A stretch of DNA of 40,300 nt. Source: an uncultured Anaerolineales bacterium (GTDB lineage Bacteria; Chloroflexota; Anaerolineae; Aggregatilineales; Aggregatilineaceae). The position numbers and the translations under genes were made by a program. Below, one piece after another: positions 17,678 through 26,713 of the stretch. The notes beneath the pieces were generated by a model. It had not been told where the DNA came from and ran no database searches. It saw only the letters and a list, made by a program, of their open reading frames with translations. The stretch is from positions 1 through 40,300 of the forward strand of contig CAKZOB010000064.1 of the NCBI GenBank assembly GCA_937135955.1, written 5' to 3'. The stretch's first letter is position 1, and every line of letters starts with the position of its first letter.

Positions 17678-18229
17678 ATGCCCTCTATGTCGCTGCAACG
17701 TACACACCGGCTTACCCGTCAGTCTGCGCTGACAGCGGTGTTGGGCGAAGCTGGACTGTCGGCGCTGGGACCGATAGCCCTTGCCACGGGGCTGGGGCTG
17801 CTGTTAGATTTCTGGGTGACGGGGCTGCACCCGCTGTTCAGTGTCGGGTTGCTGTTGGCGAGTATCCCGCTGGCCTATGGTTGGGCGCTCTACAGGACGT
17901 TGCGCATGAACCCGAAAATCACACCGGATTACGCGCGCAACCTGGCGCTGGCGAGTGTCGCCGGGCAGGCGGGCTGCCTGACAGTGATCATCATCTTTGT
18001 GGCGCTGTTTGGGGGGATGTTCCTGGACTCCAGGCTGGACACTCACCCCATTTTCACGATCGGTCTGGTTCTGCTCAGTGTACCGGTGAGTCTGTACGCA
18101 ATGATCCGGCTGATGCTCTCTTCGGTAGCGTCGCTGCGGATGACGCCTCCCGCGCAAGGAGGACGCACCGCAGCCCAGGCATCGCCCACGCCGTCAGACA
18201 CTAGCACAACAAAGGAGAATAGCTCTTGA
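17678..18229 (+). CDS. AtpI/AtpZ-like ATP synthase accessory membrane protein
   Basis: First gene of the Fo operon. The 183-residue product has two similar hydrophobic hairpins: ATGLGLLLDFWVTGLHPLF followed by VGLLLASIPLAYGWALYRTL, and FGGMFLDSRLDTHPIFTIG followed by LVLLSVPVSLYAMIRLML. Each resembles the AtpZ/AtpI hairpin, with Gly before a LD turn and a conserved P-F/I-F after it, so this looks like an internal duplication. Family members help assemble the c-ring or act as Mg/Ca channels. The C-terminal tail (about 40 residues) is Ser/Thr/Pro-rich. ATG 17678 is chosen; ATG 17687 is possible and neither has a strong ribosome site. The stop overlaps the TTG start of subunit a (TTGA). Confidence 0.8.
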   Translation: MPSMSLQRTHRLTRQSALTAVLGEAGLSALGPIALATGLGLLLDFWVTGLHPLFSVGLLLASIPLAYGWALYRTLRMNPKITPDYARNLALASVAGQAGCLTVIIIFVALFGGMFLDSRLDTHPIFTIGLVLLSVPVSLYAMIRLMLSSVASLRMTPPAQGGRTAAQASPTPSDTSTTKENSS

Positions 18230-19539
18230 AAGGAGTGCTGATACTCTTAGGCATCATTGCCGTCAGCGTCATCTTCTGCGGCATCATCCCCTTTGTGGTC
18301 ATGCCAGGCGCTGGGGTAGCGGTGGCCCTGCCCGTGATCATGGTGCCCGGCGAAGTGGTGTGGGAAGACTTTCTGGGCATTAAGGGCCTGACGATAACCA
18401 ACACGATCATCGGCACGCTGGTCGCCGATGTCATTGTGCTGGCCTTCGCCTTCGCTGCCACGCGCCGGATGCGCATGGTGCCGGGCCGTTTGCAGGGCCT
18501 CTTCGAGGTGCTCACCGATGCCCTGTGGAGCCTGGCCAAGTCTACGGCTGGCCCCAATGCGCGGCCCATCTTCCCGCTGATGGCCACCATCTTCATCTTC
18601 CTGCTGGTCGCCAACTGGGTCAAGCTGCTGCCCGGTGCAGAGAGCATCGGGCTGATGCACTGCGCCGCGGAAGGGGTTAACGGCTATGACCGTAACGGTA
18701 TCCTGCTCAAGGTGGACAAAGCGATGGATACCGGCATCCGCGCTACCAAGGAAAACTACTACGCCTGCCATCACAAAGGCGAGCATCACGATCCGGCGCA
18801 CGATGCCGCGCTGAGCGCCGTGCTCAGTGCCGCGGCGCAGGAGCTGGGCGTCGAGTCGATCTCCCTGCGCGACGATGTGGGCAATGCCCGCAGCGTGGCC
18901 CAATATGTCGCCGAGCAGGGCGGCGATGTCGAGGCGGTGTTGGCGCGGGCGCTGGCCCTGGCCGAGGAGATGGCCGTCGCGCCTGCCGAAGGCGAAGCGC
19001 CCGCGGAAGGCGAGGGCGAGCACACCGCCGAGGCCAAATCGCCCGCCGAACTGGTGCCCGCCGTGCTGGAGGAGCCGTACTACCGCGACGACCTGTATGC
19101 CGTCACCCCCTTTGTGCGCGGCGCAGCGACCGACCTCAACCTGACCCTGGGGCTGGGTCTGCTGGCGTTCCTGGCCATTCAGTACTTCGGCGTGCGGGCG
19201 CAGGGCCTGCGCTACTTCACCAAGTTCTTCAATACGCCCGCCCTGGAGAACGTCGGCAAGAACCCGATGGGCATCATGGACTTCGTGGTGGGGTTGCTAG
19301 AGATCATCTCGGAGCTGGCGAAGATTCTCTCGTTTGGCTTCCGTCTTTTTGGCAACCTGTTCGCGGGCGGCGTGCTGCTCTTTGTGATGTCGTTCTTGCT
19401 GGCGATGCTCGTTCCGGCGGGCGTCTATGGCTTGGAACTGTTCGTGGGGTTGATCCAGGCGTTTGTGTTCGCCATGTTGCTGCTGGTCTTCAGCGCTATG
19501 GCCATGCAGGGGCATGGTCACGGCGAGGAGCACCACTAG
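18226..19539 (+). CDS. atpB: ATP synthase Fo subunit a with a large internal insertion
   Basis: Subunit a forms the proton half-channels against the c-ring. The 437-residue product is much longer than the usual 220-300. The N-terminal helices (MKGVLILLGIIAVSVIF, TIIGTLVADVIVLAFAF) and VANWVKLLPGAESIG are normal. About 145 residues (roughly 142-285) are then inserted, with a Cys/His-rich start (YYACHHKGEHHDPAHD) and an Ala/Glu-rich stretch (EEMAVAPAEGEAPAEGEGE). The family sequence resumes at RGAATDLNLTLGLGLLAF. The essential Arg is in SFGFRLFGNLFAGG (Arg373), and the C-terminus ends in a His-rich tail. The TTG at 18226 follows AAGGAG and overlaps the stop of the gene before it. Confidence 0.93.
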   Translation: MKGVLILLGIIAVSVIFCGIIPFVVMPGAGVAVALPVIMVPGEVVWEDFLGIKGLTITNTIIGTLVADVIVLAFAFAATRRMRMVPGRLQGLFEVLTDALWSLAKSTAGPNARPIFPLMATIFIFLLVANWVKLLPGAESIGLMHCAAEGVNGYDRNGILLKVDKAMDTGIRATKENYYACHHKGEHHDPAHDAALSAVLSAAAQELGVESISLRDDVGNARSVAQYVAEQGGDVEAVLARALALAEEMAVAPAEGEAPAEGEGEHTAEAKSPAELVPAVLEEPYYRDDLYAVTPFVRGAATDLNLTLGLGLLAFLAIQYFGVRAQGLRYFTKFFNTPALENVGKNPMGIMDFVVGLLEIISELAKILSFGFRLFGNLFAGGVLLFVMSFLLAMLVPAGVYGLELFVGLIQAFVFAMLLLVFSAMAMQGHGHGEEHH

Positions 19540-19862: not shown

Positions 19863-20564
19863 GTGGACGCATTAGGGATTAATCTGGGGTTCTTCATCGC
19901 CCAACTGGTCAACTTCGGCATCATCTTCCTGCTGCTGGCCAAGTTGGTCTGGCCGCGCGTGCTGAAGATGCTCGACGAGCGCTCGGAGCGCATCGCCAAG
20001 GGCCTGGAAGACGCACGGGCGGCTGAAGAAGCGCGCGCCAACGCCGAGCGCGAGCGCGACAAGCTGCTGGCGCAGGCCCGCGCCGAAGCGCAGAAAGTGC
20101 TCGAAGAGGCGCGGCAGCGCGGCGAAGAGCAGCTCAAGCAGATGCTGCGCGAGGCGCAGGCCGAGGCCGAGAAAGTCCGCGAACAGGCGCGGGCACAGGC
20201 GGAAGAAGAGCGCAATCGCATTCTGGCCGAGGCGCGCGACGACATTGTGGCGCTGGCCCTGGCCGCCGCCGAGCGCCTGGTGGGCGAGACGCTCGATGAG
20301 AAGCGCCAGAAAGCCATCCTGAAGCGCTTCTTCGCGGGCGTGCCTGCCGAGGCGAAGGGTCTGGGCGACAAGGTGCTGGTAGTCAGCGCGGTGCCGCTGA
20401 CCGACGATGAAAAGGCCGAGGTGCTCAAGATCACCGGCGCGAAGCAAATCGAGTACAGGGTTGACCCGTCCATCCTCGGCGGGATGATCCTGCGCGCTGG
20501 CGACAAGGTGGTGGATGGCAGTGTGCGCGGCGACCTGAGCGCGCTTTCGATGGCCTTGCGCTGA
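19863..20564 (+). CDS. atpF: ATP synthase Fo subunit b fused to a delta C-terminal domain
   Basis: A 233-residue peripheral-stalk protein. Residues 1-30 hold the membrane anchor (NLGFFIAQLVNFGIIFLLLAKLVWP). Residues 32-165 form a long charged coiled coil rich in Glu, Arg and Ala. From about 170 to the end the sequence matches the C-terminal part of subunit delta (VSAVPLTDDEKAEVLKIT, IEYRVDPSILGGMILRAGDKVVDGS). The N-terminal helical domain of delta is not present, so this is b plus half of delta. GTG 19863 has CCAGGAGGC upstream. No alpha, gamma, beta or epsilon genes follow; the operon ends here at a hairpin and F1 must be encoded elsewhere. Confidence 0.93.
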   Translation: MDALGINLGFFIAQLVNFGIIFLLLAKLVWPRVLKMLDERSERIAKGLEDARAAEEARANAERERDKLLAQARAEAQKVLEEARQRGEEQLKQMLREAQAEAEKVREQARAQAEEERNRILAEARDDIVALALAAAERLVGETLDEKRQKAILKRFFAGVPAEAKGLGDKVLVVSAVPLTDDEKAEVLKITGAKQIEYRVDPSILGGMILRAGDKVVDGSVRGDLSALSMALR

Positions 20565-21855: not shown

Positions 21856-23421
21856 ATGCTATTCAGCCAACTGCTGGCCGACCTGCCCGGTCTACTCGCC
21901 CTGCCAGACCGCGACACAGCCATCACAGCGCCCGTCAGCGAGAACGCGGGAGCGGTCGAGCCAGGCGGAGTCTTCCTGGCGCGGCGCGGCGCTTCCGCCG
22001 ACGGGCACAACCTGATCGCGGAGGCAGTGGCGCGCGGCGCGGCGGCGGTGGTGGGCGAACGCTCGCCCCAGGCGGTGACCTGCCCCGTCCCTTATGCACA
22101 GGTGAGCGATGGGCGAGCGGCGTTGGGGCCGCTGGCCGCCGCCTACTACGGCTACCCATCGCGGAAGCTGATCGTCATCGGCGTGACGGGCACCGACGGC
22201 AAAACGACTACCTGTACCCTGCTGCACAGCATCTTACAGGCGGCGGGGGCGCGGGTTGGCTTGATCTCGACGGTGAACGCTGTGATCGGCGACGAGACGC
22301 TCGATACCGGTCTGCACGTCACCACGCCAGGCGCAGACGAGATGCAACGCTACCTGGCTCGTATGGTCGAGGCTGGCCTGACGCACGCCGTTATCGAGGT
22401 CACCTCACATGGGCTGGCGCAGGGCCGCGTCAACGGCGTGGACTTCGATCTCGCCGCCCTGACCAACGTCACCCATGAGCATCTGGATTTTCATGGCACC
22501 TGGGAGGCGTACCGCGACGCCAAAGCGAGCCTATTCCGGATGACGGCGACATCGCGGCGCAAGCTGGGCGTGCCCAAAGCTGCCGTGATCAACGCCGACG
22601 ACCCCAGCGCAGACGTGTTCCGGCAGTGGGCAGCGGGCGTGGATCGCGCCCTGACCTATGCGCTGGAAGCGCCCGCCGACTTTCGCGCCGAGGCTGTAAC
22701 CTTCGCCCCCGATGCCACGCACCTGACTATTGCCGGGCCGGATGGCCTGCGCGTACCGGTGCGCACTGCATTGGTGGGGCCGTTCAATGTCGCCAATGTG
22801 CTGGCGGCTGCGACAGCGGCCAGCGTGCTGCTGCCCGATCCAGCGACCCTGAGCGCGGCGCTGACGGAGGGCCTCGCGACCATGCCGCCGGTGCCTGGTC
22901 GGATGGAGCGCATTGACGAGGGGCAAGACTTCCTGGCAATCGTGGACTTCGCGCACACGCCCAACGCGCTGCACCGGGCGCTGGAAGCGGCGCGGACGAT
23001 GATCGCGCCGGATCGGCGGGTGATCGCTGTCTTCGGCAGCGCGGGCCTGCGCGACCGCGCCAAGCGGCGCATGATGGCCGAGATCGGTATGAAGCTGGCG
23101 GACAGGGTGGTGCTCACCGCCGAAGACCCGCGCACCGAGTCGCTGGATGCGATCCTGGCGGAGATGGCCGAGGGCTGCCGTAGCCAGGGCGGGCGCGAAG
23201 GCGAAGCCTTCTGGCGCGTGCCAGACCGCGGACGGGCGCTTGCCTTTGGCTGTTCGCTGGCGCGGCCCGGTGACCTGCTGATCGCCTGCGGCAAAGGGCA
23301 CGAACAGAGCATGTGCTTCGGGACGGTGGAGTATCCGTGGGACGACCGCGAAGCTCTGCGCGCAGCCTTGCGCGGGACGCCGCTGCTCACCCTGCCGACG
23401 GCGCAGAGCGCCGATCAGTGA
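21856..23421 (+). CDS. murE: MurE-like UDP-MurNAc-tripeptide synthetase
   Basis: Cytoplasmic ligase that adds the third amino acid to UDP-MurNAc-L-Ala-D-Glu in peptidoglycan synthesis. The 521-residue product shows the three Mur domains: the N-terminal UDP-binding domain (PGGVFLARRGASADGHNLI), the central ATPase with P-loop GVTGTDGKTTT (about residue 110) and TNVTHEHLDFHGTWEAYRDAK (carbamylated Lys), and the C-terminal domain with DFAHTPNAL and GKGHE (479-483). In the residue-3 specificity loop, the DNPR motif of diaminopimelate enzymes reads EDPR here (423-426), so the amino acid may be ornithine, lysine or another diamine. ATG 21856 follows GGAGCGCCT. It stands alone, outside a division/cell-wall cluster, 12 bases ahead of the AAA ATPase gene. 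Confidence 0.9.
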   Translation: MLFSQLLADLPGLLALPDRDTAITAPVSENAGAVEPGGVFLARRGASADGHNLIAEAVARGAAAVVGERSPQAVTCPVPYAQVSDGRAALGPLAAAYYGYPSRKLIVIGVTGTDGKTTTCTLLHSILQAAGARVGLISTVNAVIGDETLDTGLHVTTPGADEMQRYLARMVEAGLTHAVIEVTSHGLAQGRVNGVDFDLAALTNVTHEHLDFHGTWEAYRDAKASLFRMTATSRRKLGVPKAAVINADDPSADVFRQWAAGVDRALTYALEAPADFRAEAVTFAPDATHLTIAGPDGLRVPVRTALVGPFNVANVLAAATAASVLLPDPATLSAALTEGLATMPPVPGRMERIDEGQDFLAIVDFAHTPNALHRALEAARTMIAPDRRVIAVFGSAGLRDRAKRRMMAEIGMKLADRVVLTAEDPRTESLDAILAEMAEGCRSQGGREGEAFWRVPDRGRALAFGCSLARPGDLLIACGKGHEQSMCFGTVEYPWDDREALRAALRGTPLLTLPTAQSADQ

Positions 23422-23433
23422 GGAGAATCAGCC

Positions 23434-24783
23434 ATGTTGACCAGATTGCGGGCGCAGAACTTCAAATCGTGGCGGGACACGGGCGACCTGGAAATTGCGC
23501 CGTTGACAGGGCTGTTCGGCGCGAACAATTCTGGCAAGACCAGCATTCTGCAATTATTGCTGATGCTGAAACAGACTGTTGAGTCACCGGATCGGCGCAG
23601 GGTGTTGCACTTTGGCGACGAACGCTCACTGGTAGACCTGGGCACATTTTTTGATGTAGTTCATGCCCACACAACAGAGGAAGCCCTGGCGTTTTGGCTG
23701 ACTTGGGCGCTCCCCCAGCCGCTTCAGGTCGCCGATCCCGAAACAAACAGACGACTCTTCGAAATCAAGGCGTTGTCGTTTTCGACCGTTGTACACCAAC
23801 GGGACACCCGGCTGGGCGTCGAGACGTTTGTCTATCGGTTCGACGATCAACGGTTTGGCATGGCGCGGCGACCCGACGAAGAGAGGTACGATCTAATCAG
23901 CGAACCCTACCACGCCAAGCGTACGCTTGGTCGCAAATGGCCGCTTCCGCCTCCAGTGAAGTGCTACGGATTCCCCGACGAAGCGGTAGGATACTACCAG
24001 AACACTGGCTTCCTGCCCGATTTTGTTCTGGCGTTCGAGAACCTGTTTTCGGGAATCGCCTATCTGGGGCCATTGCGTGAGTATCCCAAACGCAGTTATG
24101 TGTGGGCAGGAGAGAGTCCCCTTGACGTGGGTCGGCGGGGCGAACTGGCCGTTCCCGCCTTGTTGGCATCCAGGAGTATGGGCAAAGTTATTTCACCCGG
24201 CCCTCGCAAACGGCGTCAGACGGTCGAGGAACGAGTGGGATACTGGTTGCAGCGCATGAGACTTGTTGATAGCTTCATGCTGGAACCCCTGGCCGAGAAC
24301 CGCAAAGTCTACGAGCTTCGCGTCAAGACCCGATCAGGCGGTCCACAGGTCTTGATCACTGATGTGGGTTTCGGCGTTTCGCAGATTCTGCCTGTGCTGG
24401 TGCTGTGCTACTATGTCCCCGAAGGCTCGATCATTTTGCTGGAACAGCCAGAGATTCATCTACACCCTTCGGTACAGGCTGACCTGGCTGATGTCTTGAT
24501 TGATGTCGTGAACAATCGCAACGTACAGATCATCGTCGAGAGCCATAGCGAGCACTTGCTAAGGCGTCTTCAGCGGCGTATTGCCGAAGAAGAGCTGGCA
24601 GCAGACAAGGCAGCCCTGTATTTTTGCCGAATAGAAGGTGGCGAGTCCCAGATCGAGAGGCTGCATCTGGATTTATTCGGCAACATCACCAACTGGCCCC
24701 AGGACTTTTGGGCGGATGAGATGAGTGACCGCACTGCGCAGGTAGAGGCAATGGCCAGGCGCATGGGAGCCGGAGCGCGATGA
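23434..24783 (+). CDS. AAA-family ATPase (ABC/OLD-like, DUF3696 type)
   Basis: A 449-residue ATPase of the RecF/SMC-like AAA group. It shows LRAQNFKSWRDTGDLEI, the Walker A GANNSGKTS (29-37), a Q-loop region LLLMLKQTVESPD, the signature-like VGFGVSQILPVL, the Walker B IILLEQPEIHLHP and the H-loop VESHSEHLLRRLQRR. The tail (LFGNITNWPQDFWADEM) fits DUF3696 proteins. Such ATPases are often paired with a nuclease as a defence module. ATG 23434 follows GAGGAGA 12 bases after the MurE gene. Its last four bases overlap the start of the PIN-like gene (ATGA). By eye this gene and the next are less GC-rich than their neighbours, which suggests transfer. Confidence 0.9.
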   Translation: MLTRLRAQNFKSWRDTGDLEIAPLTGLFGANNSGKTSILQLLLMLKQTVESPDRRRVLHFGDERSLVDLGTFFDVVHAHTTEEALAFWLTWALPQPLQVADPETNRRLFEIKALSFSTVVHQRDTRLGVETFVYRFDDQRFGMARRPDEERYDLISEPYHAKRTLGRKWPLPPPVKCYGFPDEAVGYYQNTGFLPDFVLAFENLFSGIAYLGPLREYPKRSYVWAGESPLDVGRRGELAVPALLASRSMGKVISPGPRKRRQTVEERVGYWLQRMRLVDSFMLEPLAENRKVYELRVKTRSGGPQVLITDVGFGVSQILPVLVLCYYVPEGSIILLEQPEIHLHPSVQADLADVLIDVVNNRNVQIIVESHSEHLLRRLQRRIAEEELAADKAALYFCRIEGGESQIERLHLDLFGNITNWPQDFWADEMSDRTAQVEAMARRMGAGAR

Positions 24784-25280
24784 TCGCCATCGTAGATACC
24801 AACGTGCCCGTTGTGGCCAATGGGCGCTCTGAGCAAGCTTCTGTAGAGAGTGTGAACGTCTGTGCGCTACAACTGAAGCAGATTACCAGGGAGGGCAAAC
24901 TGGTTCTAGACGATCGGTGGCGTATCCTGCGCGAGTACATGAAGTATCTATCCTCTAGTGGACAGCCAGGCGTCGGTGATGCGTTTTTAAAGTGGGTATT
25001 TAACAACATTGCCAATCCGGCCCGTATCGAGATAGTGCTTATCACGCCCATCAACCCCAATGATCCAGATAATGCCGATTTTCGAGAATTCCCCGACGAT
25101 CCGGCTCTGGCCAGTTTCGATCCCTCGGATCGCAAATTCGTTGCTGTTTGCCTGGCGCATTCGCAACACCCGCCTATTTTGAACGCTACCGATCGCGATT
25201 GGTGGGACTTCAGAGAGGCACTCTCTGTTCACGGGGTGCAGGTTCGATTCTTGTGCGAAGAAGGGAAGCGTCATGACTGA
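24780..25280 (+). CDS. PIN-domain-like nuclease
   Basis: A 166-residue protein with the acidic pattern of PIN nucleases: Asp6 in IVDTNVPV at the end of strand 1, Glu52 in RILREYMKYL, Asp114/Asp117 in SFDPSDRKFVAVCLAH, and Asp138/Asp140 in NATDRDWWD. Together these could bind the catalytic metals. PIN domains usually cut RNA. The start overlaps the ATPase stop by four bases and the end overlaps the next gene by eight, so all three are translated as a coupled set. It is not a standard VapC toxin: no antitoxin gene is adjacent, and the partner is an AAA ATPase. The family call is from motifs only. Confidence 0.78.
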   Translation: MIAIVDTNVPVVANGRSEQASVESVNVCALQLKQITREGKLVLDDRWRILREYMKYLSSSGQPGVGDAFLKWVFNNIANPARIEIVLITPINPNDPDNADFREFPDDPALASFDPSDRKFVAVCLAHSQHPPILNATDRDWWDFREALSVHGVQVRFLCEEGKRHD

Positions 25281-25710
25281 CCCGCGCGCCATAACTGTCC
25301 AGCAATTCCGCCAGGAGCAGGGCGCGGATAGCGTGTACATCCTGACGGCCATACAGCCGTTCACTGTCAGCCAGAATCGCTGCATGGTGGTAGTGACGGG
25401 GCGCTGTGCGCAGTTGGTATGCTGCAATAGCTGTACGCCGCGCACCTCACTGGGGCAGGGCAGCCTGCGTGAGGTAGAACCGGCGGTGCTGGAACAGTTC
25501 CTGCGCGACCTGCAGGACGCCGAACTCGCCTGGACGGGCGATGCTGTCCCTCCGCATGTGCACGACGGGGTTACCTTCACGGTAGAGCGGGCGGACGAAC
25601 ACGGCTACGACCGTGTGCGCATTGTAGACCCTGCGCCGGACGGACCCCATGCCCGCTTGCTGGCTGCCTGGCGCGAGGCATTCCCGGAGGCGCGGCGCAT
25701 GATGCGCTAG
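25273..25710 (+). CDS. Conserved-looking hypothetical protein, third gene of the AAA-PIN cassette
   Basis: I do not recognise this 145-residue protein. It has a beta-like N-terminal half (ADSVYILTAIQPFTVSQNRCMVVVTGRCAQLVCCNSC) with five cysteines, four within ten residues, which might bind a metal. A Pro/His-containing middle (WTGDAVPPHVHDGVTFTVERADEHGYDRVRI) and a helical end follow. ATG 25273 lies within the last codons of the PIN gene (overlap 25273-25280), behind GAAGGGAAG, so it is coupled to it. GC content returns to that of the surroundings, so it may belong to the host locus rather than to the ATPase-nuclease pair. Confidence 0.75.
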   Translation: MTDPRAITVQQFRQEQGADSVYILTAIQPFTVSQNRCMVVVTGRCAQLVCCNSCTPRTSLGQGSLREVEPAVLEQFLRDLQDAELAWTGDAVPPHVHDGVTFTVERADEHGYDRVRIVDPAPDGPHARLLAAWREAFPEARRMMR

Positions 25711-25774
25711 CGTCCGCTGGCCGCGTGTCGGTCGTTGGGAGTGCGCACAGTACTTCGCTATCAGAAATATGGTA

Positions 25775-25783
25775 TGCTAAAAT
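25775..25783 (+). promoter_or_regulatory. Possible extended -10 promoter of the polysaccharide genes
   Basis: TGCTAAAAT, i.e. an extended -10 (TGn before TAAAAT), in an AT-rich stretch 31 bases before GTG 25814. No good -35 is present. Confidence 0.45.
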
Positions 25784-25813
25784 CGCCTGCGCACAGAGGT
25801 AGGAGGTGCACGG

Positions 25814-26713
25814 GTGGATTTGGGGATCGTCATCGTCAACTGGAACACGCGCGATCTGCTGCGCGAGTGCCTGTGTTCGGTGCTGGCCTCGCAGGGCGAT
25901 TTCAGCTACCGCGTGGTGGTGGTGGACAACGCCTCCACCGACGGCAGCGCCGACATGGTGCGCGCGGAGTTCCCCGACGTGACCCTGATCGCCAACGCCG
26001 AGAATGTGGGCTATCCCCGCGCCAACAATCAGGGCTTTCGGGCCTTGGGGTTCGAGCAGGGCTGTGGAGCCGATGTGCCGCGCTATGCTCTGGCGCTCAA
26101 CCCGGATACGGTGTTGCCCCCCGACGCGCTGAGCGCTATGCTGGCCTATATGGATGCCGACGAGACCATCGGTGTGGCCGGGCCAAAGCTGATCCTGCCC
26201 GACGGATCACTCGACCTGGCCTGTCGGCGCAGCTTTCCGTCGCCGGAGATCAGCTTCTATCGCATGGTGGGGCTATCGAAGCTGTTTCCGCGCAGCCGGC
26301 GCTTCGGGCGGTATAATTTGACCTACCTCGATCCGGATATCGAGACCGAGGTAGACTCTGTGGTGGGGGCGTTCATGATGGTGCGCCGCGAGGCGATTCA
26401 GCAGGTGGGGTTGTTCGACGAGACGTTTTTTATGTACGGAGAGGATCTGGATTGGGCGTTTCGCATCAAGCAGGCCGGGTGGAAAGTGATGTACAACCCG
26501 CGGGTGACAGTCAGGCACGTCAAACGGGCGGCGAGCCGACAGTCGCGCCGGGCACAACAGGAATTCTACCGGGCGATGCTGATCTTCTACCGCAAACACT
26601 ACCGCCGGACGACTCCCTGGTGGCTGCACAGTCTGGTACTGATGGGGCTGGCCCTGCGGGGCGGGCGGCCTCTCTGGCGCGACCTGTGGCAGCCCGCAGC
26701 CGCTTCCAGGTAA
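25814..26713 (+). CDS. Family 2 glycosyltransferase (rhamnosyltransferase-like)
   Basis: A GT-A fold sugar transferase of 299 residues acting on the cytoplasmic face in surface-polysaccharide assembly. The nucleotide-sugar part is visible: IVIVNWNTRDLLRECL, VVVVDNASTDGSADM (the DN/DG motif), ENVGYPRANNQGF and ALNPDTVL (the DxD-like position). The acceptor part contains VVGAFMMVRREAI and FFMYGEDLDWAFRIKQAGW (ED catalytic base). The GEDLDW ending is typical of WbbL-like rhamnosyltransferases. GTG 25814 has AGGAGG seven bases upstream. Its end overlaps the start of the glycosylphosphotransferase gene. Confidence 0.94.
   Translation: MDLGIVIVNWNTRDLLRECLCSVLASQGDFSYRVVVVDNASTDGSADMVRAEFPDVTLIANAENVGYPRANNQGFRALGFEQGCGADVPRYALALNPDTVLPPDALSAMLAYMDADETIGVAGPKLILPDGSLDLACRRSFPSPEISFYRMVGLSKLFPRSRRFGRYNLTYLDPDIETEVDSVVGAFMMVRREAIQQVGLFDETFFMYGEDLDWAFRIKQAGWKVMYNPRVTVRHVKRAASRQSRRAQQEFYRAMLIFYRKHYRRTTPWWLHSLVLMGLALRGGRPLWRDLWQPAAASR

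What the first reader, a model, noticed from the sequence alone, without database searches (positions are those of the whole stretch)
23434..25280. AAA ATPase and PIN-like nuclease in overlapping genes: possible two-gene defence module
An OLD/DUF3696-type ATPase (Walker A GANNSGKTS, Walker B LLEQPEIHLHP) overlaps by ATGA with a 166-residue protein carrying PIN-type acidic residues D6, E52, D114/117, D138/140. ATPase plus small nuclease is the plan of several phage-defence systems (Septu, PARIS, Gabija-like), but those use HNH, Toprim or OLD nucleases; I know no named system with this ATPase-PIN pair. The two genes look lower in GC than their flanks. The position right behind a cell-wall ligase gene is odd for a defence island.
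Basis: partly seen in the sequence, partly recalled or inferred. Interest (0 to 1): 0.62.

Follow-up and report, generated by a model that had tools for sequence, protein, structure and literature searches.

The report
ATPase–PIN nuclease pair, HEC-03 type
Two overlapping bacterial genes encode an ATP-driven protein and a small enzyme with the fold of RNA-cutting toxins; they most likely form a little-studied virus-defence module, and in many other bacteria the same pair carries a third gene, an RNA-sealing enzyme, which hints at how it works.

Summary
Window 23434-24783 encodes a 449-aa SMC/Rad50/PtuA-like ATPase and 24780-25280 a 166-aa protein, with an ATGA overlap. The small protein matches nothing in Pfam or NCBIfam, but its AlphaFold model (pLDDT 92) has a PIN fold, and D6, D44, E52, D114, D117 and D138 are kept in 78-80 of 80 relatives. 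The claim that no named system has this plan is wrong: both genes match PADLOC's candidate system HEC-03 (HEC-03B 2e-149, HEC-03A 1.5e-34). The pair lies behind murE in three genomes of the family (a fourth nearly so), is missing from ten readable junctions, and has low GC3. Elsewhere the ATPase is directly upstream in 74 of 80 loci; some loci adjoin Hma, restriction, Druantia or BREX genes, or lie on plasmids.

New here: an Rnl2-type RNA ligase gene follows the PIN gene in 20 of 80 loci, 7 of 10 sampled Pseudomonadota carriers and both viral contigs. Five loci keep only PIN plus ligase. This suggests that the PIN cuts RNA and the ligase reseals it. The window copy has no ligase. Verdict: a member of a known candidate defence family, with a mechanistic clue I did not find in print. 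No activity has been shown.

The parts
23434..24783 (+). HEC-03B-type ATPase (449 aa), SMC/Rad50/PtuA/OLD-like ABC ATPase without a recognisable nuclease domain of its own
   Evidence: PADLOC HEC-03B 2.1e-149, residues 1-443 on 1-451 of 458; AAA_15, AAA_21, DUF3696; model pLDDT 82.7, Foldseek E 3.8e-12 to an SMC head, also Rad50, PtuA, GajA, OLD; PDB sequence hits to OLD 6p74 (3.1e-11) and PtuA (1.2e-4)
23518..23544 (+). Walker A motif GANNSGKTS (residues 29-37)
   Evidence: sequence; G29, N31, S33, G34, K35 invariant in 13 aligned homologues
24436..24468 (+). Walker B region LLEQPEIHLHP (residues 335-345)
   Evidence: sequence; L336, E337, P339, H342-P345 invariant in 13 homologues
24780..25280 (+). 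HEC-03A-type PIN-fold protein (166 aa), probable nuclease; candidate catalytic acids D6, D44, E52, D114, D117, D138
   Evidence: PADLOC HEC-03A 1.5e-34; model pLDDT 92.1; VIA Z 10.0 to VapC11; conservation in 80 homologues
24780..24783 (+). ATGA stop-start overlap of the two genes
   Evidence: the same 4-base overlap is available in 51 of 74 homologous pairs, a 1-base overlap in 9 more
21856..23421 (+). murE-type Mur ligase, left border of the insertion site (context, not part of the system)
   Evidence: Pfam Mur_ligase_M 3.9e-47; synteny in family
25273..25710 (+). 145-aa protein of unknown function, right border; overlaps HEC-03A by 8 bases but is present behind murE in relatives without the pair, so not part of the system
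   Evidence: no Pfam family

Best explanation
The pair is a chromosomal HEC-03 system: a mobile, two-component anti-virus module. The ABC-type ATPase (HEC-03B) holds and controls a small PIN-fold ribonuclease (HEC-03A). On infection the ATPase recognises a viral signal and releases or activates the PIN enzyme, which cuts an essential RNA, most likely tRNA, and stops virus production or growth of the infected cell, in the way AriA/AriB of PARIS does with a Toprim tRNase. In many bacteria the operon has a third gene, an Rnl2-type RNA ligase, that would reseal PIN-made cuts and limit self-damage; the window copy lacks it. Shown here: gene identity, PIN fold of the model, conserved acids, ATPase motifs, pairing, patchy and plasmid-borne occurrence, neighbourhoods with defence genes, ligase association. 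Inferred: that it defends, the trigger, RNA as substrate, tRNA as target, control of the PIN by the ATPase, and the role of the ligase.
For: Both proteins match HEC-03 over full length. The ATPase is directly upstream in 74 of 80 relatives, and adjacent in all 14 other Chloroflexota genomes of a 400-genome sample and all 10 Pseudomonadota genomes of a 397-genome sample that have the PIN gene. PIN and ATPase distances correlate (Spearman 0.58; best of 1000 permutations 0.26; 60 loci). 130 genes flanking 35 loci hit 156 PADLOC models at 1e-15; the 25 shown include Hma, PsyrT, Druantia, BREX, Qat and restriction-modification. 117 genes at random places in 25 of the same genomes hit 32 models; of the 25 shown, 19 are PD-T4-6 models with one member each. 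10 of 12 plasmid records with the gene are typed conjugative or mobilizable, and one viral contig has the operon directly behind a phage-type integrase gene (PF00589 1.5e-32). RNA ligase is the next gene in 20 of 80 loci, 7 of 10 Pseudomonadota carriers (the sample's centre, chosen because it has the operon, is not counted), 4 of 5 plasmids viewed and 2 of 2 viral contigs. The ligase label needs at least 4 changes on the PIN tree, so the link looks recurrent. Related ATPase-nuclease pairs cut tRNA: PARIS (passages of PMC12409363) and Septu (abstract and passages of PMC13096335).
Against: No activity, trigger or substrate is tested. No defence gene was recognised among the ten window proteins scanned around the pair, the copy has no ligase, and its genome has no PF09414 match. 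No ligase was found beside the 14 other Chloroflexota copies (in one the contig ends 99 bases after the PIN gene), so the RNA argument is carried over from relatives. PIN-fold enzymes can also cut DNA. Foldseek alone was weak (E 5.4e-3). The neighbourhood test counts families, not proteins, and its neighbour set also holds ordinary enzymes.
Confidence: 0.6

Rival explanations
1. A toxin-antitoxin-like module: the PIN protein is a VapC-like toxin and the ATPase is its antitoxin; the main effect is maintenance of the element or stress response, and any phage protection is secondary.
For: The closest folds are VapC toxins. An AAA ATPase antitoxin for an RNase-like toxin has been reported (AarT, passages of PMC10440598). 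Copies lie on plasmids.
Against: Five Burkholderiales loci keep the PIN without the ATPase but with the ligase. Neighbourhoods have many defence-gene matches. The ATPase is a large SMC/PtuA-like enzyme, not a small DNA-binding antitoxin.
Confidence: 0.2
2. A DNA-cutting defence: the Rad50/SMC-like ATPase loads the PIN/FEN-like nuclease on phage DNA ends, as a Gabija- or SbcCD-like machine.
For: The top Foldseek matches of the ATPase are SMC and Rad50 heads. Some PIN-like enzymes (FEN family) act on DNA (recalled).
Against: The best PIN matches are VapC toxins, with several RNA-processing PIN enzymes lower down. The third gene, where present, is an RNA ligase (PF09414 4.7e-34), and the PIN is kept with the ligase even without the ATPase.
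Confidence: 0.12
3. A housekeeping RNA-processing or cell-wall-linked gene pair that happens to follow murE.
For: It is co-directional with murE, with tight spacing and overlap into the next conserved gene.
Against: Absent from 10 readable murE junctions in the same family, including that of G002, whose murE is most like the window's; rare in the phylum sample (15 of 400 genomes); low GC3; not near murE in other lineages (112 loci).
Confidence: 0.04

Closest known systems
HEC-03 (Hma-embedded candidate 3, PADLOC-DB 2.0.0; the source preprint, Payne et al. 2024, is not held and was not read)
   Same: Both proteins match over full length; same gene order and overlap as relatives; HmaB and HmaC matches lie beside some relatives
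   Different: The window copy is not embedded in Hma; an RNA ligase follows the pair in 20 of 80 relatives, and none of six ligase frames scanned had a PADLOC hit
PARIS (AriA/AriB)
   Same: ABC ATPase plus small nuclease in adjacent genes; the ATPase hits an AriA model at 1.6e-27
   Different: The partner is PIN-fold, not Toprim; HEC-03B is a far better match than AriA
Septu (PtuA/PtuB) and retron I-A effectors
   Same: PtuA-like ATPase fold with a small nuclease; Septu cuts tRNA-Tyr (PMC13096335)
   Different: PIN in place of HNH; no reverse transcriptase among the genes next to the pair in the window
VapBC toxin-antitoxin
   Same: VapC-like PIN fold (VIA Z 10.0)
   Different: No VapB-type partner; the partner is a 449-aa ATPase; the PIN protein is longer, with a GQPGxGD loop kept in most homologues and a C-terminal Cys kept in 79 of 80
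DefensePredictor DS-3 and DS-5 (PMC13092281, passages seen)
   Same: PIN ribonuclease needed for phage defence
   Different: DS-3 is a single protein; DS-5 pairs the PIN with a DUF5830/AcrIF4-like protein; the passages name no ATPase partner

Membership tests
HEC-03 (PADLOC candidate) | HEC-03B-type ATPase | tested here: met
   2.1e-149, 496 bits, full length
HEC-03 (PADLOC candidate) | HEC-03A-type small protein | tested here: met
   1.5e-34, residues 1-161 on 1-153 of 159; the only PADLOC hit at E up to 1
HEC-03 (PADLOC candidate) | the two genes adjacent | tested here: met
   4-base overlap; PADLOC's own system rule file was not seen
HEC-03 (PADLOC candidate) | protects against phages | not testable with these tools
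   PMC12988326 says several HECs including HEC-06 have activity; no statement on HEC-03 in the passages seen
PIN domain superfamily | PIN fold | tested here: met
   model pLDDT 92.1; VIA Z 10.0, rmsd 3.1, 123 aligned to 6a7v_A; most rows shown are VapC/PIN; Foldseek alone E 5.4e-3
PIN domain superfamily | conserved acidic residues as in PIN active sites | tested here: met
   D6 78/80, E52 80/80, D117 80/80, D138 80/80; mapping onto a VapC active site residue by residue was not done
PIN domain superfamily | metal-dependent nuclease activity | not testable with these tools
   no biochemistry
Septu | HNH nuclease partner PtuB | tested here: not met
   the small protein hits only HEC-03A in PADLOC and models as PIN
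PARIS | Toprim nuclease AriB | tested here: not met
   partner hits only HEC-03A and models as PIN
Gabija / OLD | Toprim domain fused to the ATPase | tested here: not met
   no Toprim match in the 449-aa protein at E up to 1 in Pfam; the C-terminal match is DUF3696
VapBC | VapB-type antitoxin gene beside the PIN gene | tested here: not met
   upstream gene is the ATPase, downstream is a 145-aa protein conserved without the pair and with no Pfam family

The most novel reading that the evidence does not exclude
HEC-03 is one end of a wider class of cut-and-reseal immunity: an ABC ATPase sensor, a PIN ribonuclease that makes ends an Rnl2 ligase can join, and a dedicated RNA ligase that reverses the damage, so that cells can survive their own defence. 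Chloroflexota, including the window, would carry an irreversible two-gene form and some Burkholderiales a sensor-less PIN-ligase form.
Probability: 0.4. Interest if true: 0.75.

Novelty: new member of a known kind. Interest (0 to 1): 0.5.

Why it matters
The window locus puts HEC-03 in an Anaerolineae lineage (by the record titles of its nearest relatives) and shows it present or absent at one chromosomal site. The recurrent RNA ligase gives a direct, testable clue to a candidate system for which I found no described mechanism in the papers I could see: it points to RNA as the target and to repair as part of the system. If so, a bacterial defence would carry its own antidote for RNA damage, a job known from phages such as T4 that mend cut host tRNA (recalled).

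Tried and rejected
Pfam and NCBIfam gave nothing for the small protein. A profile search of PDB sequences with the PIN alignment gave three matches that I read as chance (best a de novo TIM barrel, E 0.00098, no stretch passing on its own), so the PIN assignment rests on the model and fold comparison, where Foldseek alone was weak. No match in 50,697 phage records. I asked whether the 145-aa protein downstream is a third component: it is present behind murE in relatives without the pair, so no. I asked whether the window genome has an RNA ligase elsewhere: no PF09414 match (other ligase families such as RtcB were not searched). The Fe-S, Nudix, luciferase-like, WD40/redoxin and unnamed ORFs at this junction in relatives differ from genome to genome. 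Paper searches: HEC-03 (one of its three papers, on osteoarthritis, was not opened), guilt-by-embedding, DUF3696 with PIN and phage, embedded immune systems, PIN with AAA ATPase, PIN with ABC ATPase and Septu, RNA ligase with PIN, RNA ligase with self-repair, DUF3696 with RNA ligase. None of the listings or passages seen described an ATPase-PIN-RNA ligase operon; most subscription papers and all preprints are not held, so absence from print is not shown. The complex could not be predicted (one protein per job).

Limits of the counts: the 80 loci are the best of 202 that encode a relative, found by one 8-residue pattern and ranked by likeness to the window, so they over-represent near kin. Two of the 80 (L086, L087) are contigs of the family genomes G001 and G008. 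The PADLOC neighbour test used 130 of 140 listed genes: six RNA ligase genes of the system, one ORF antisense to a ligase (L161), one ORF overlapping the end of the PIN gene (L114) and two far genes (L142, L146) were dropped. It covers 35 loci, after six near-duplicate cyanobacterial loci were dropped and loci with under 4 kb on a side, and those without the ATPase, were left out. Genes were called by a simple longest-ORF rule and long ones cut to 780 aa; the control has 117 genes from 25 loci. The A-B correlation used 60 of 67 full-length pairs after removing near copies. The 5 plasmid regions viewed are 5 of 12 records with a match. The Pseudomonadota sample was drawn around a genome chosen because it has the operon; with it the counts are 11 of 398 genomes and 8 of 11 with ligase.

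Full report
What is there. The first (449 aa) is an ABC-type ATPase with AAA_15, AAA_21 and DUF3696 matches; its model (pLDDT 82.7) is closest to SMC and Rad50 heads, with PtuA, GajA and OLD among the matches. The second (166 aa) has no Pfam or NCBIfam match. PADLOC names both: HEC-03B at 2.1e-149 and HEC-03A at 1.5e-34, the latter being the small protein's only hit.

The PIN fold. An alignment of 14 relatives gave a confident model of the window protein (pLDDT 92.1, pTM 0.88). VIA-align puts VapC toxins and other PIN proteins in most of the 50 rows shown, best Z 10.0 with rmsd 3.1 over 123 residues (6a7v_A); a few rows are not labelled PIN, such as 8wmm_G and RohQ. Foldseek alone gave only E 5.4e-3, again with a toxin-antitoxin complex, and a PDB sequence profile search found nothing useful. 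In 80 relatives D6 is kept in 78, D44 in 78, E52 in 80, D114 in 78, D117 in 80 (biased by the search pattern) and D138 in 80; D140 is K in 22.

The site. In this family the order murE, 145-aa protein, glycosyltransferase, sugar transferase is widely kept. The pair sits between murE and the 145-aa gene in G000, in G001 (83% and 75% identity) and, in another genus, in G008 (about 72% and 65%). In G008 it is read from two contigs whose ends overlap exactly by 87 bases, with a Nudix and an Fe-S ORF between the PIN and the 145-aa gene. In G004 the start of the ATPase gene lies at a contig end, one Fe-S protein ORF away from murE. It is absent from the junction in G002, G003, G005, G006, G007, G009, G011, G013, G016 and G017. 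G010, G012, G014 and G015 gave no readable junction of this kind. A family search found an ATPase match in 5 of 18 genomes, of which G015 has only a distant one. G002, whose murE is the most like the window's (88%), has murE and the 145-aa gene 52 bases apart with no trace of the pair. Other genes occupy the murE-to-glycosyltransferase stretch elsewhere: a luciferase-like gene in G005, a WD40/redoxin gene in G009. GC3 of the pair is 0.65 and 0.57 against 0.77-0.82 for its neighbours, and similarly low in G001 and G008. Whether the pair was inserted once and lost often, or inserted more than once, is not settled.

Spread. In the phylum sample 15 of 400 genomes have the small protein; the ATPase is adjacent in all 14 other than the window's own genome, some with broken or truncated genes. 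In a Pseudomonadota sample, besides the centre genome, 10 of 397 have it and all 10 have the ATPase adjacent; none of 14 well-known control genomes has it. A scan of genome contigs found 202 relatives, of which the best 80 were kept, from at least 15 phyla. The ATPase is directly upstream in 74 of 80, with a 4-base overlap available in 51 and a 1-base overlap in 9. The six others are one contig end (L157) and five Burkholderiales discussed below. ATPase and PIN distances correlate (0.58 against at most 0.26 in 1000 permutations). 12 of 72,556 plasmid records carry the small protein, 10 of them typed conjugative or mobilizable by PLSDB. Two viral contigs do, one with the operon directly behind a phage-type integrase gene; no phage record does.

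Defence context. Genes around 35 HEC-03 loci hit 156 PADLOC models at 1e-15; the 25 shown include HmaB, HmaC, PsyrT, Druantia, BREX, Qat and restriction-modification, but also DndA/SspA models that ordinary enzymes may match. Genes at random positions in 25 of the same genomes hit 32; of the 25 shown, 19 are PD-T4-6 models with one member each, the rest RtcR, a kinase, mad6 and MkoA. The output lists families, not proteins, so this is a contrast and not a rate, and the HEC-03 neighbours also include many ordinary enzymes. On an Acinetobacter soli plasmid the pair, with its ATPase annotated in two pieces, lies behind helicase and N-6 methylase genes, Hma-like by annotation, with an HNH gene after it. 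In the window no defence gene was recognised among ten nearby proteins scanned with Pfam.

The RNA ligase. In five Burkholderiales loci (L149, L151, L163, L164, L165) the PIN gene has no ATPase; instead an RNA ligase follows (PF09414 4.7e-34 for L149). A search of all 80 loci found the ligase as the next gene in 20, 15 of them with the ATPase too (same 20 with a broader model). All 20 keep the KxDG nucleotidyl-transfer motif. The ligase also follows in 7 of 10 Pseudomonadota carriers, in 4 of 5 plasmids viewed and in both viral contigs. It was not found beside any of the 14 other Chloroflexota copies of the phylum sample, though in G142 the contig ends 99 bases after the PIN gene. On the PIN tree the ligase needs at least 4 changes, the loss of the ATPase only 1 (quick method, weak backbone). 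PIN residue K140 goes with the ligase in 18 of 22 loci, against 2 of 58 without K140. Six ligase frames scanned against PADLOC had no hit. From general knowledge, metal-dependent PIN enzymes leave 5'-phosphate and 3'-hydroxyl ends, the ends Rnl2-type ligases join; a passage of PMC7824862 notes that metal-independent RNases leave ends that such ligases cannot use directly. Calling these ligases Rnl2-type is my reading of the PF09414 match and length, not a separate test. Together this makes RNA the likely substrate and resealing the likely role of the ligase.

How it most likely works. By analogy with PARIS, where the ATPase AriA holds the tRNase AriB and releases it on sensing phage proteins (passages of PMC12409363), and Septu, which cuts tRNA-Tyr (PMC13096335), the ATPase would sense infection and release or activate the PIN RNase. 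Fold, motifs, pairing, patchiness and neighbourhoods are shown; defence itself, trigger, substrate and control are inferred. For the window copy, without a ligase, the outcome would be growth arrest or death of the infected cell.

Known or new. The window pair is a member of HEC-03. The term was found in two papers of the library: a list of systems in rumen genomes and an osteoarthritis paper not opened. PMC12988326 says several HECs, including HEC-06, have tested activity. DefensePredictor notes that a PIN domain was recently validated elsewhere and cites the HEC preprint among four references, but I could not see whether that is HEC-03. The ligase link was in none of the listings or passages seen.

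A second pair. G001 and G015, from the same family, carry another ATPase followed by a different small PIN-like protein. The ATPase is best matched by NsnB (1.3e-56 and 3.9e-59); the small protein has no PADLOC hit at 0.001. It recurs in 7 of 400 genomes of the phylum, with the ATPase beside it in 6 of the 7, and aligns weakly to the HEC-03A profile (hhalign probability 59%, E 9e-5). It may be a second, unlisted ATPase-PIN family.

Noticed in passing
L149, L151, L163, L164, L165 (Aquabacterium / Burkholderiales): HEC-03A-type PIN gene followed by an RNA ligase gene with no ATPase in the locus: a possible stand-alone PIN-ligase module.
   Followed up: partly
L083:4435-6298 (G001) and L084:4177-6045 (G015); relatives L220-L226: A second ATPase plus PIN-like pair in Chloroflexota; the small protein has no PADLOC match and no Pfam match above a family cut-off.
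   Followed up: partly
window 21856-26713 and the same junction in relatives (L042-L051, L087): The murE-to-glycosyltransferase stretch is variable: Fe-S protein, Nudix, luciferase-like and WD40/redoxin genes occur there in different genomes.
   Followed up: partly
window 25273-25710: A 145-aa protein kept behind murE in many members of this family, with no Pfam family.
   Followed up: partly
window 18226-19539: ATP synthase subunit a gene of unusual length (437 aa), its best Pfam stretch being residues 293-422.
   Followed up: no
window 19863-20564: ATP synthase b (PF00430) and delta (PF00213) matches in one 233-aa protein, apparently a fusion.
   Followed up: no
L064, L065, L066, L070: HEC-03 genes split or shortened in some Chloroflexota genomes (split ATPase frames; PIN frames of 73 and 101 aa): decay, or assembly errors and contig ends.
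   Followed up: no
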